Assembly: GCA_021845835.1 (NCBI GenBank)
Contig: JAJZVE010000230.1
Coordinates: forward strand, 1 to 7,205
Reading direction: 5' to 3'
Length of the DNA stretch: 7,205 nucleotides
DNA from: Pseudomonadota bacterium
Lineage (GTDB): Bacteria > Pseudomonadota > Alphaproteobacteria > Acetobacterales > Acetobacteraceae
The translations under genes were made by a program, and so were the position numbers. The notes below the pieces were generated by a model. It was not told the DNA's origin and did no database searches. It was given only the letters and a program-made list of their open reading frames with translations. Shown piece by piece: positions 1 to 3,425 of the stretch (position 1 is its first letter; every line of letters begins with the position of its first letter).

Positions 1-1205
<1,205 letters not shown>

Positions 1206-1206
1206 G

Positions 1207-1479
1207 TCAGCCTCGCGCGATCAGGGCGCGCGCGGCCGCGACGCCGTCAGGTGTCAGTTCCAGCCGCCAATGGCATTGCAACGCGCCTTCCGGCAGCCGG
1301 ATCGGCTCGCGGATCAGGCCGCGGCGCAACGCTTCGGCCACGGCGGCGTGGAATGACGCGGCATCGAGCGTTCCGTCCGCGAGCGCCTGGACCTGCTCGC
1401 ACGCCGCCTCGGCATTCGCGGCCGAGACCGCGTGGCGGAAGCCGATGCGCAGCAGGGCCGCGAGTGCCGCGCCGGTCAA
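1207..1479 (-). CDS. Unrecognised 90-aa protein encoded between carA and carB
   Basis: I do not recognise this gene. The best start is TTG at 1479-1477, which overlaps the carA TGA as TTGA (4-base overlap); no ATG or GTG lies nearby in frame. The stop at 1209-1207 is one base before the carB ATG. The 90 codons show strong G/C preference at third positions like the neighbouring genes, and the stop and start junctions are typical of a coupled operon gene, so I believe it is translated. The predicted protein is alanine-rich and helical (about residues 4-53). It ends with RRGLIREP (52-59), an HWRLELT stretch (70-76) and [10 protein letters not shown] (77-86). A helix, then GLI, then an LTPDG turn faintly resembles the wing of winged-helix proteins such as MarR or PadR, but it is too short and weak to assign. 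There is no signal peptide or membrane segment. A function tied to carbamoyl-phosphate synthetase is inferred only from position. Confidence 0.7.
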
Positions 1480-2843
1480 GCGGCACCATCCATCATCGCC
1501 ACGAACCGCGCGAACAGGTGCCGGCTGTCGGTCGGGCCGGGGCTGGCCTCCGGGTGGTACTGCACGCTGAAGGCCCGCTTGCCCGGACACGCGAGGCCCT
1601 CGTTGCTGCCGTCGAACAGGCTCCTGTGCGTCACCCGCACGCCTTCGGGCAGCGATGCCTCATCGACGGCGAAACCGTGATTCTGGCTGGTGATCTCGAC
1701 GCGGCCGGTGAGCAGGTCCTTGACCGGCTGGTTGGCGCCGCGATGCCCGCGCACCAGCTTGTAGGTCCGCCCGCCCAACGCGAGCGCCAGCAACTGGTGG
1801 CCGAGGCAGATGCCGAACAGCGGCTTGCCCGACGCCAGCACGCCGCGAATCGCCGGCACCGCGTAGTCGGCGGTCGCCGCCGGATCGCCCGGGCCGTTGG
1901 AGAGGAACACGCCGTCCGGGTGGTGGCGCAGGATGTCCTCGGCGGTCGCGGTCGCCGGTACCACGGTCACGCGGCAGCCGGCGGCAGCGAGGCAGCGCAG
2001 GATGTTGCGCTTGGCGCCGTAATCCACCGCGACCACGTGATGCCGCGGCGCGGTCTGCCGCCCATGCCCGTCCGGCCAGACCCACAGGGTTTCGTCCCAC
2101 GTGTAGCTCTGCGTGCAGGAGACGCGGCGGGCGAGGTCCATGCCCTCCAGCCCCGGCCAGTCGCGCGCGCGCGCGATCAGCGCCGGAATGTCGAAGCGCG
2201 CGTCGGCGGGGTAGGCGAGCACGCCGTTCGGTGCGCCGCCGTCGCGGATGCGCGCGGTCAGCGCCCGCGTGTCCACCCCGGCCAGTCCCGCCACCCCCTG
2301 CGCGCGCAGCCAGCCGTCCAATCCCTGCGCCGCGCGCCAGTTGGCGGGTTCCGTTACGTCCTGCTTCACCACGAGGCCGCTTGCGGCGATGGTGCCTGCC
2401 TCCAGATCCTCCGGATTGGCGCCGACATTGCCGATATGGGGGAAGGTGAAGGTGATGATCTGCCCGGCATAGGACGGATCGGTCAGCGTTTCCTGATAGC
2501 CGGTCATGCCGGTGTTGAAGCACACCTCGGCCGGCTTGCCGGCGCCGTGCGCGCCGAAGCCGCGGCCCCAGAACACCGCCCCGTCGGCGAGCACGAGGCA
2601 GGCATCGGCGCCTTCGGGCGGCAGGGTCGGGTCGGGCATGGCCGGTCTCGTCTCCTGCGACGGCGCGCCGGGAATGTCGGCGAGCGCCACGCCCAGCATC
2701 TGGATCAGCACCGGCCAGTGGCGCGCCGGGATGACGCCGTTCTGCCGCCATTTGCGCAGCGCCTCGGTGCCCACGCCCAGCCCGCGGGAAGCCGCGGCGG
2801 GGCCGCCGAGCCGGGCGATGATGGTGTCCACCTGGATGGCCAT
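1476..2843 (-). CDS. carA: Carbamoyl-phosphate synthetase small subunit with fused N-terminal helix-turn-helix domain
   Basis: CarA hydrolyses glutamine and passes ammonia to CarB. The protein is 455 residues, about 70 longer than E. coli CarA (382). Residues 1-56 are an extra Cro/YdaS-like helix-turn-helix: GGPAAASRGLGVGTEALRKW (13-32), then NGVIPARHWPVLI (35-47). A linker (57-68) leads to an internal Met69, where canonical CarA would begin (MPDPTLPPEGADACLVLADG). The CPSase small-chain N-domain follows (about 72-205; NTGMTGYQETLTDPSYAGQI). The class I glutamine amidotransferase is intact: FLSNGPGDP, nucleophile Cys346 in GICLGHQ, and His430 and Glu432 in QYHPE, with the same 84-residue Cys-His spacing as E. 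coli C269-H353. The ATG at 2843 is supported by a TAAGG ribosome binding site 7 bases upstream. I recall an NCBI family name 'carph-isopro' for a domain of this sort on CarA; this is unverified. The gene diverges from yqeY and is followed by a small ORF and carB. Confidence 0.96.
   Translation of the reverse strand: MAIQVDTIIARLGGPAAASRGLGVGTEALRKWRQNGVIPARHWPVLIQMLGVALADIPGAPSQETRPAMPDPTLPPEGADACLVLADGAVFWGRGFGAHGAGKPAEVCFNTGMTGYQETLTDPSYAGQIITFTFPHIGNVGANPEDLEAGTIAASGLVVKQDVTEPANWRAAQGLDGWLRAQGVAGLAGVDTRALTARIRDGGAPNGVLAYPADARFDIPALIARARDWPGLEGMDLARRVSCTQSYTWDETLWVWPDGHGRQTAPRHHVVAVDYGAKRNILRCLAAAGCRVTVVPATATAEDILRHHPDGVFLSNGPGDPAATADYAVPAIRGVLASGKPLFGICLGHQLLALALGGRTYKLVRGHRGANQPVKDLLTGRVEITSQNHGFAVDEASLPEGVRVTHRSLFDGSNEGLACPGKRAFSVQYHPEASPGPTDSRHLFARFVAMMDGAA
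2651..2656 (-). promoter_or_regulatory. Possible internal ribosome binding site for a short CarA form
   Basis: AGGAGA on the minus strand lies 11 bases before the in-frame Met69 codon of carA (ATG at 2639-2637). Translation from there would give a 387-residue CarA without the helix-turn-helix, close to the standard family length. The spacing is longer than usual, so this may be chance or a remnant of an ancestral start. Confidence 0.3.
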
Positions 2844-2850
2844 GCGACGA

Positions 2851-2855
2851 CCTTA
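2851..2855 (-). promoter_or_regulatory. carA ribosome binding site
   Basis: TAAGG on the minus strand, 7 bases upstream of the ATG at 2843, matches the start of the consensus TAAGGAGGT. It decides in favour of the long CarA that includes the helix-turn-helix domain. It directly abuts the TGGGAAA/TTTCCCA palindrome, so a protein bound there, or an RNA hairpin formed by it, could affect carA translation initiation. Confidence 0.65.
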
Positions 2856-2872
2856 TGGGAAATTTTTTCCCA
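2856..2872. promoter_or_regulatory. Perfect inverted repeat TGGGAAA-TTT-TTTCCCA, candidate operator
   Basis: Two 7-bp arms form a perfect inverted repeat around a 3-bp spacer in the carA/yqeY divergent intergenic region, 13 bp upstream of the carA ATG. The AT-rich core stands out against very GC-rich surroundings. The symmetry and size suit a dimeric helix-turn-helix repressor, and the adjacent CarA carries such a domain at its N-terminus, so autoregulation is the simplest hypothesis. In the carA transcript the same sequence could also form a short hairpin with an AAA loop. No regulator is proven. Confidence 0.6.
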
Positions 2873-2893
2873 AGGCAACGCCGGGCGGCCACA

Positions 2894-2910
2894 TGGGAAA
2901 TCGGTTACCG
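2894..2910. promoter_or_regulatory. Second, degenerate copy of the inverted repeat (TGGGAAA-TCG-GTTACCG)
   Basis: The left arm is identical to the first site. After the same 3-bp spacer, the right arm matches TTTCCCA at 4 of 7 positions. The centre lies 38 bp from the centre of the first palindrome and 65 bp upstream of the yqeY ATG. A strong site plus a weaker one in a divergent promoter region is a common repressor arrangement. The half-site repeat is visible; its role as an operator is inferred. Confidence 0.45.
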
Positions 2911-2953
2911 GGGGATGCAGCGCGGGCCGCCATGGAGTAGAGGATGGTTTTCC

Positions 2954-2958
2954 AGGAG
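2954..2958 (+). promoter_or_regulatory. yqeY ribosome binding site
   Basis: AGGAG lies 8 bases upstream of the ATG at 2967. This is the strongest Shine-Dalgarno match of the right-hand operon, which fits yqeY being its first gene; dnaG has no comparable site. Confidence 0.7.
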
Positions 2959-2966
2959 CGGCCGCG

Positions 2967-3425
2967 ATGTCCCTGCGCGAACAGTTCACCGAGCAGCTCA
3001 AGGCGGCCATGCGCGCGGGCGATGCGCCGCGCGTCTCGACGCTGCGCATGGTCCTGGCGAAGCTGAAGGACACCGACATCGCCGCGCGGCCGGGCGGCGT
3101 GCCGCAGGTGCCGGACGAGCAGATCGTGGCGATGCTGCGCGGCATGGCGAAGTCGCGCCGCGAGAGCGTCGATCTCTACCGGCAGGGCAGCCGCCCCGAC
3201 CTGGTCGCCAAGGAGGAGGCCGAGATCGCGGTGATCGAATCGTTCCTGCCGCAGCAGTTGGACGCGGCGGCGACCGAGCGGGCGGTGGCGGACGCGATCG
3301 CCGCGACCGGTGCCGCTGGCGTGAAGGACATGGGCCGCGTGATGGCGGCGCTGAAGGCGCAGCACGCGGCGACGCTGGACATGGCCCGCGTCGGCCCGCT
3401 GGTGCGGGCGAAGCTCGGCGGCTGA
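2967..3425 (+). CDS. GatB/YqeY domain-containing protein
   Basis: This 152-residue cytoplasmic protein is a full-length member of the YqeY family, which resembles the tail domain of the GatB subunit of Asp/Glu-tRNA amidotransferase. Its exact role is not settled; tRNA or RNA binding is the usual suggestion. Family hallmarks are visible: an N-terminal helical segment with LKAAM (11-15) and TLRM (25-28), a central KSRRESVDLY (62-71) followed by EEAEIAVIESFLPQQL (83-98), and a C-terminal DMGRVMAAL (121-129) in the region that matches the GatB tail. The start has a good AGGAG site 8 bases upstream. The stop TGA shares its final A with the dnaG ATG, so the two are translationally coupled. The order yqeY-dnaG-rpoD, divergent from carA, is to my knowledge common in alphaproteobacteria, with yqeY in the place of rpsU in the E. 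coli operon. The product name is secure; the molecular function is not. Confidence 0.95.
   Translation: MSLREQFTEQLKAAMRAGDAPRVSTLRMVLAKLKDTDIAARPGGVPQVPDEQIVAMLRGMAKSRRESVDLYRQGSRPDLVAKEEAEIAVIESFLPQQLDAAATERAVADAIAATGAAGVKDMGRVMAALKAQHAATLDMARVGPLVRAKLGG

What the first reader, a model, noticed from the sequence alone, without database searches (positions are those of the whole stretch)
2636..2843. Helix-turn-helix DNA-binding domain fused to the front of CarA
Seen: carA encodes 68 extra residues before the point where ordinary CarA begins (Met69). They contain a compact helix-turn-helix-like unit (GGPAAASRGLGVGTEALRKW, then GVIPARHW) similar to Cro/YdaS-type domains. A good TAAGG ribosome binding site precedes the upstream ATG, so the fused form should be made. 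Known: metabolic enzymes that also regulate transcription exist (PutA with its ribbon-helix-helix; PepA and PyrH acting on E. coli carAB). Inference: CarA here is a 'trigger enzyme' whose DNA binding may respond to glutamine, CarB binding or pyrimidine/arginine state. A family name for such a domain may already exist (I recall 'carph-isopro'), so the domain may not be new even if its function is open.
Basis: partly seen in the sequence, partly recalled or inferred. Interest (0 to 1): 0.72.

Follow-up and report, generated by a model that had tools for sequence, protein, structure and literature searches.

The report
CarA enzyme likely represses its gene
In one family of bacteria (the acetic-acid bacteria and their kin) an enzyme needed to make arginine and pyrimidines carries a phage-repressor-like DNA-binding head, and paired DNA sites of the kind such heads bind lie in its own promoter, so the enzyme probably turns down its own gene.

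Summary
Residues 5-56 of CarA (window 1476-2843, minus strand) form an HTH of the named NCBIfam family carph-isopro (61.5 bits, cut-off 38), predicted four-helical and most like phage Cro. Of 397 Acetobacteraceae genomes 374 carry the domain over cut-off; among the other 23, only two complete CarA genes turned up, both without it.

A perfect 17-bp palindrome (2856-2872) lies just upstream, with a weaker copy 38 bp away. Of 108 fused-carA upstreams not found through the operator, 92 hold GGGAA-N5-TTCCC (one mismatch allowed), against 0 of 66 unfused carA. In 64 of 107 loci the proximal site ends 9-18 nt before the ATG; 57 of those 64 have TTG at one fixed offset: the operator fills a -35/-10 spacer and the mRNA looks leaderless. 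The 'TAAGG RBS' is then the -10 box. Met69 is a probable second start: linker Mets have an SD-like sequence in 54 of 64.

Related Cro-like HTHs head pyruvate kinase, HisZ and CoaBC genes, each with its own palindrome type. Best reading: CarA represses its own promoter. DNA binding is untested; the signal is unknown.

The parts
1476..2843 (-). carA, long form, 455 aa, stop included
2676..2831 (-). carph-isopro HTH domain, residues 5-56
   Evidence: NF046037, 61.5 bits, cut-off 38; fold prediction
2778..2801 (-). first HTH helix, residues 15-22
   Evidence: DSSP on the AlphaFold2 model
2739..2768 (-). putative recognition helix, residues 26-35 (TEALRKWRQN)
   Evidence: DSSP on the AlphaFold2 model; E27 A28 R30 K31 W32 R33 invariant in 36 sequences
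2604..2675 (-). linker, residues 57-80
   Evidence: residues 63-68 below pLDDT 50 in the full-length model
2637..2639 (-). Met69, probable internal start of ordinary short CarA
   Evidence: linker Met with SD-like sequence in 54 of 64 loci
2652..2656 (-). AGGAG, SD-like, 12 nt before Met69
   Evidence: sequence; listed
1479..2603 (-). CarA proper, residues 81-455
   Evidence: TIGR01368 81-452, 438 bits
2856..2872 (.). proximal operator candidate, perfect arms: TGGGAAA-N3-TTTCCCA
2894..2910 (.). distal operator candidate, 3 mismatches to the symmetric pattern, 9 of 10 core bases read on the minus strand, 38 bp away
2850..2855 (-).
   Evidence: fixed geometry in 64 loci; not found by the promoter scanner
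2873..2878 (-). TTGCCT, probable -35 box
   Evidence: TTG at this offset in 57 of 64 loci
3..1205 (-). carB, first 401 aa, runs off the window; likely downstream gene under the same control
   Evidence: ORF; recognised by eye, not scanned
2967..3425 (+). YqeY-like gene, divergent from carA, sharing the intergenic region
   Evidence: PF09424, 144 bits

Best explanation
The long form of CarA is an enzyme that is also a repressor. Its N-terminal Cro-like HTH, acting as a dimer, binds two 17-bp palindromes (TGGGAA-N5-TTCCCA type) about 38-40 bp apart in the carA promoter. The proximal site fills the spacer between -35 and -10, so binding keeps RNA polymerase out and turns down carA and, by position, the downstream carB: negative autoregulation by the amount of HTH-CarA. 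In this window transcription probably starts at or beside the first ATG (leaderless mRNA), giving the long form, while an internal SD-driven start at Met69 gives ordinary short CarA. Shown here by computation: domain, predicted fold, conservation, operators, their near-restriction to carA, promoter geometry, SD-like sequence at Met69. Inferred: DNA binding, dimerisation, repression rather than activation, co-transcription with carB, two isoforms. A guess, at about 0.3: the repressing species is HTH-CarA not held by CarB, so that the promoter reads the CarA/CarB balance.
For: Domain and fold: (best structural matches are phage Cro proteins, one with its operator). Operators: in 108 distinct fused-carA upstreams not found through the operator, core score 8 of 10 or better at least once in 107 and twice in 98; stricter pattern 92 of 108 against 1.7 in shuffles and 0 of 66 unfused carA. 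Near carA only: 28 of 30 fetched pattern loci and 33 of 37 listed sites that could be placed. Geometry: TTG at one fixed offset in 57 of 64, A at the second -10 position in 58 of 64. Two complete CarA genes without the HTH also lack sites of 9 or more. Parallel cases: pyruvate kinase, HisZ and CoaBC with related HTHs and palindromes of other types. Second start: 54 of 64 linker Mets with an SD-like sequence, peak 9-16 nt upstream; 55 of 72 against 8 of 246 later ATGs in a wider count.
Against: No binding data. The promoter scanner finds no sigma-70 site in 2780-3010. The distal site in the window is imperfect. Foldseek gives no match at E 0.001 or better. Covariation of HTH residues with operator bases cannot be separated from descent (4-5 independent pairs). 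G212, which lacks the HTH, keeps two non-palindromic 8-of-10 matches, a chance-level score. Mic60-like proteins with the same domain show no excess of palindromes, so the domain does not always go with a visible self-operator. 43 of 107 loci do not have the leaderless geometry.
Confidence: 0.7

Rival explanations
1. Another repressor (of arginine, pyrimidine or nitrogen control) owns the palindromes; the HTH-like domain on CarA does something else, such as pairing CarA subunits.
For: Binding by CarA is not shown; the covariation test is inconclusive; the same domain on Mic60-like proteins has no clear palindrome.
Against: A regulator with other targets should have other sites, yet 28 of 30 fetched loci of the exact pattern are at fused carA; unfused carA lacks the sites, 0 of 66; the two complete CarA genes without the HTH lack them too; other enzymes with related HTHs have different palindromes at their own genes.
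Confidence: 0.17
2. HTH-CarA binds the palindromes but activates carA, or mainly controls the divergent YqeY-like gene.
For: The distal site lies further upstream, where an activator could sit; YqeY is divergent and shares the region.
Against: The proximal site fills the -35/-10 spacer in 57 of 64 leaderless-type loci, the usual place of a repressor. In some relatives the gene on the other side is not YqeY (seen by eye, not counted), while the sites stay.
Confidence: 0.1
3. The extension is not made: translation starts only at Met69 and the upstream frame is a relic.
For: Met69 has an SD-like sequence as in most relatives; Met1 in leaderless-type loci has one in only 3 of 52.
Against: 374 of 397 genomes keep the domain, with 11 invariant HTH residues in 36 sequences beside freely varying linkers; in loci with a leader, Met1 has an SD-like sequence in 26 of 38.
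Confidence: 0.03

Closest known systems
NCBIfam NF046037 'carph-isopro domain-containing protein'
   Same: Residues 5-56 are a member, 61.5 bits against a cut-off of 38. By its name the family was seen on a carbamoyl-phosphate enzyme before (my reading of the name; its description was not seen).
   Different: The family entry as shown gives no function, operator or second start; no held paper contains the name.
Phage Cro proteins (P22 Cro, N15 Cro, Xfaso 1 Cro)
   Same: Predicted fold, weak sequence similarity, palindromic sites in a promoter.
   Different: Fused to a metabolic enzyme; P22_Cro score is below the Pfam cut-off for CarA, though above it for two pyruvate kinase fusions.
E. coli carAB control by ArgR, PurR, RutR and the trigger enzymes PepA and PyrH (PMC6245113, passages)
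   Same: Enzymes with a gene-regulatory role act on a carAB promoter; ArgR binds two 18-bp imperfect palindromes there.
   Different: There other proteins do it; here the regulated enzyme itself bears the HTH.
PutA and BirA (recalled; BirA abstracts seen in the listing)
   Different: PutA has a ribbon-helix-helix and BirA another HTH (recalled); CarA has a Cro-like HTH, promoter-embedded paired operators and a probable second start that yields an HTH-free form.

Membership tests
NF046037 carph-isopro domain | Score over the curated cut-off (38 bits) | tested here: met
   57 and 61.5 bits
Pfam P22_Cro / YdaS_toxin | Score over the gathering cut-off (30.2 / 30) | tested here: not met
   20.1 and 15.1 bits at best
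Cro-like HTH DNA-binding proteins | Helical HTH fold | tested here: met
   Predicted, not solved; Foldseek ranks Cro proteins first, probability 0.99-1.00, E 0.035 and up
Cro-like HTH DNA-binding proteins | Palindromic operator overlapping a promoter | tested here: met
   Sequence evidence only:
Cro-like HTH DNA-binding proteins | Binds DNA as a dimer | not testable with these tools
   Half-site centres 11 bp apart would suit a dimer (inference)
Trigger enzyme | Active enzyme | tested here: inconclusive
   CarA family score 438 bits against 307 and the GICLGHQ nucleophile motif kept (motif recalled); activity not measured
Trigger enzyme | Second, gene-regulatory function | not testable with these tools
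   Predicted from HTH plus operators
PutA-type enzyme-repressor | Ribbon-helix-helix DNA-binding domain | tested here: not met
   Residues 1-60 modelled as helices without strands

The most novel reading that the evidence does not exclude
A phage-type control cassette (Cro-like HTH plus operators set in the promoter, often with a leaderless start) has been attached repeatedly in Alphaproteobacteria to the front of key metabolic enzymes - CarA, pyruvate kinase, HisZ, CoaBC, and perhaps ArgB, GlmU and PDH E1-alpha - turning each into the repressor of its own gene; CarA also makes an HTH-free form from an internal start, which sets the ratio of regulator to enzyme.
Probability: 0.5. Interest if true: 0.9.

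Novelty: new variant of a known kind. Interest (0 to 1): 0.82.

Why it matters
If true, it tells how a whole bacterial family controls the enzyme at the branch point of arginine and pyrimidine synthesis, and it names the DNA site, so the idea can be tested with one gel shift. It would also show a simple and repeatable route by which an enzyme becomes its own repressor. And it warns about annotation: a gene caller that picks Met69 hides the regulator, one that picks Met1 hides the short form. Non-pathogenic laboratory strains (Gluconobacter, Komagataeibacter) make it testable.

Tried and rejected
Rejected: 'TAAGG is the RBS' as the better reading (3 of 52 leaderless-type loci have SD-like sequence before Met1; -35/-10 geometry). 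Rejected: a broad regulon of the exact palindrome; degenerate sites elsewhere were not searched. Inconclusive: HTH-operator covariation. Mutual information ranks residues 36 and 34 (window numbering) first of 58 columns for the TGGGAA/CCGGAA difference, but only 4-5 supported independent pairs exist on the tree. Negative: Mic60-like fusions as a group have no palindrome excess (z 0.5, n 24), although one locus (L264) looked convincing to me by eye; ArgB n 3, z 2.0. The internal SD-like start is clear for CarA, suggestive for pyruvate kinase (13 of 15 against 46 of 217 later ATGs) and not seen for HisZ (3 of 9) or CoaBC (1 of 12). The promoter scanner found nothing. Some HTH-bearing loci fetched were not identified (L292, L299-L305).

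Literature: no held paper contains 'carph-isopro'. The searches listed no title or abstract that describes this design; one search listed 10 of 236 papers, and the library lacks most subscription journals. Passages were read in PMC5756330, PMC6978683 (only two reference-list hits) and PMC6245113; no paper was read whole.

Full report
1. Observation. carA is 1476-2843 on the minus strand, 455 aa. CarA proper starts near residue 81 (TIGR01368 81-452, 438 bits; PF00988 from 83). Residues 5-56 match NCBIfam NF046037 'carphisopro' at 61.5 bits (cut-off 38). Pfam P22_Cro and YdaS_toxin match below cut-off, and PHROG 8008, 'DNA binding protein', at 2.7e-6. AlphaFold2 on 36 aligned domains gives helices 5-11, 15-22, 26-35 and 40-49, mean pLDDT 83.6. 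Foldseek against the PDB has no match at E 0.001 or better; its top ranks are Xfaso 1 Cro, N15 Cro (with operator DNA) and P22 Cro, probability 0.99-1.00, E from 0.035. A profile search of PDB sequences gives Cro relatives at E 2e-4 to 1.2e-3. In the full-length model residues 63-68 of the linker are below pLDDT 50.

2. Conservation. The window's own genome is not held. In 397 genomes of the family of Acidocella aquatica (G003), that is Acetobacteraceae, 374 have the domain over cut-off and 380 at E 0.001. I confirmed fusion to CarA by script in 140 loci, some of them the same gene fetched twice, with 125 distinct upstreams; not all 374 were checked. The 23 genomes without an over-cut-off domain were searched with the CarA protein at 1e-60: 16 had no CarA, 5 had a CarA cut by a contig end, and 2 (G212 and G032; 1.7 and 1.9 Mb) had a complete CarA without the domain. 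In 385 genomes drawn from the class, 73 have the domain over cut-off. I fetched 49 of those loci (L216-L264). None of L245-L264 fitted my CarA pattern, and the readable ones of L216-L244 are of another type (L234 and L240 were not readable there). So the CarA fusion looks confined to Acetobacteraceae, on a partial sample.

3. The operators. The window holds TGGGAAATTTTTTCCCA at 2856-2872 with perfect arms and a second match with three mismatches at 2894-2910. Expected by chance in the whole window: 0.06; two or more in 1 of 200 shuffles. The same pair stands before fused carA across the family. In 108 distinct upstreams not found through the operator, a core score of 8 of 10 or better occurs at least once in 107 and twice in 98; 9 or better in 93 and 83. 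With all 125 upstreams, 124 have a site at core 8; five shuffled sets gave 9 to 23; unfused carA from other Alphaproteobacteria gave 6 of 66, as did its shuffles (6 to 8). The stricter pattern GGGAA-N5-TTCCC with one mismatch gives 92 of 108, shuffles 1.7, unfused 0 of 66. The start codons of the unfused genes were set by rule, which weakens that control somewhat. The spacing of the two sites is 38-40 bp in 74 of 98 pairs. The two complete CarA genes without the HTH have no site of 9 or more within 500 bp; G212 has two non-palindromic matches of 8, G032 nothing over 6.

4. The sites belong to carA. The exact pattern TGGGAA-N5-TTCCCA occurs in 75 of 120 genomes, mostly once or twice each; the same pattern read backwards occurs in 9 of 120. 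Of the 30 pattern loci returned, 25 lie at fused carA by script and 3 more by reading (L199, L200, L212); L198 and L214 lie elsewhere. Of 37 sites that I took from the capped list in 28 genomes with a known carA position, 33 lie within 400 bp of it.

5. Promoter design. In 64 of 107 loci the proximal site ends 9-18 nt before the ATG. Among these, TTG sits at one fixed offset upstream in 57, and A stands at the second position after the operator in 58: TTGNNN, 17-bp operator, TANNNT-like box, about 6 nt, ATG. The transcript would then start at or beside the ATG. SD-like sequence precedes Met1 in 3 of 52 such loci and in 26 of 38 others. In the window this reads TTGCCT, operator, TAAGGT, CGTCGC, ATG. 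The promoter scanner found nothing here, so the claim rests on conservation across the family. Leaderless mRNAs are known in Gluconobacter oxydans: 62 of 1344 mapped starts (PMC5756330, passages; that paper's main text does not name carA).

6. A second start. 72 of 90 loci have a Met in or beside the linker before CarA proper, and an SD-like tetramer precedes it in 55 of 72, against 8 of 246 later internal ATGs. With distinct loci and a tighter definition it is 54 of 64; the tetramers peak 9-16 nt before the ATG (64 hits), with one hit in the 8 nt next to it, and smaller clusters further off. In G212, which lacks the HTH, CarA starts at the equivalent Met with CAGGA before it. Two products, regulator-enzyme and enzyme, are therefore likely in most of the family.

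7. The wider pattern. Related Cro-like HTHs, mostly below the NF046037 cut-off, head other enzymes: HisZ (L256; L247, L248, L251), CoaBC (L254, L255, L259; L262), ArgB (L258) and GlmU (L263), PDH E1-alpha (L257), pyruvate kinase in Acetobacteraceae (L287 and L084, with P22_Cro over its Pfam cut-off), and Mic60-like proteins (5 of 9 proteins scanned). In the order with CoaBC fusions 85 of 101 genomes have a match, 23 over cut-off. In the family sample 14 of 120 genomes gave a match to the pyruvate kinase HTH inside an open frame of 547-594 aa. Each group has its own palindrome: pyruvate kinase CTTA-N7-TAAG, 16 of 19; HisZ TTCATA-N3-TATGAA, 17 of 17; CoaBC TGAA-N4-TTCA, 25 of 33; cross-hits are at most one per group. 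Those patterns were read off the same sequences, so the fairer test is a pattern-free palindrome score against shuffles: z 14.8 for CarA (n 108), 8.5 for HisZ (17), 6.4 for CoaBC (33), 5.2 for pyruvate kinase (19), 2.0 for ArgB (3), 0.5 for Mic60-like (24), 0.4 for unfused carA (66). Close kinship within the HisZ and CoaBC sets inflates their z.

8. Mechanism. The half-site centres are 11 bp apart, about one helical turn, as an HTH dimer would need (arithmetic and inference). An operator inside the -35/-10 spacer points to repression. The simplest loop is that HTH-CarA limits its own operon. Whether CarB, substrates or end products modulate it is open; I guess that HTH-CarA not held by CarB is the repressing form.

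9. Known or new. The domain family is named, and enzymes with a fused DNA-binding domain that repress their pathway genes are known in kind (PutA, BirA; recalled). On E. coli carAB other proteins do the work: ArgR, PurR, RutR, PepA, PyrH (PMC6245113, passages). No held paper contains 'carph-isopro', and the listings show no title or abstract on this design. I rate it a new variant of a known kind.

Noticed in passing
window 1207-1506 (-): Open frame between carA and carB, about 100 aa, ending 1 nt before the carB ATG; no Pfam match. It may be a small gene inside the operon.
   Followed up: partly
L084, L287-L291, L348-L361: Pyruvate kinase of some Acetobacteraceae bears a Cro-like HTH at its N-terminus, with CTTA-N7-TAAG palindromes upstream in 16 of 19.
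   Followed up: partly
L247-L253, L256, L293, L294, L306-L317 (HisZ); L254, L255, L259, L262, L318-L347 (CoaBC): HisZ and CoaBC fused to the same kind of HTH, each with its own upstream palindrome type.
   Followed up: partly
L257 (PDH E1-alpha), L263 (GlmU), L258 and L295-L298 (ArgB): Further enzymes with an HTH of this kind at the front; too few to test operators.
   Followed up: partly
L217, L224, L241, L245, L264 and look-alikes in L216-L244: The domain also heads Mic60/mitofilin-like proteins, where no group-wide palindrome is seen; its role there is open.
   Followed up: partly
genome G075: Eleven exact copies of TGGGAA-N5-TTCCCA in one genome, against at most three in the other 119 searched.
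   Followed up: no
L081, L103, L106-L108, L117, L137 and others: A subset has CCGGAA/TTCCGG-type half-sites and Ser or Gly instead of Gln or Arg at HTH residues 34 and 36; a possible change of specificity, not separable from descent.
   Followed up: partly
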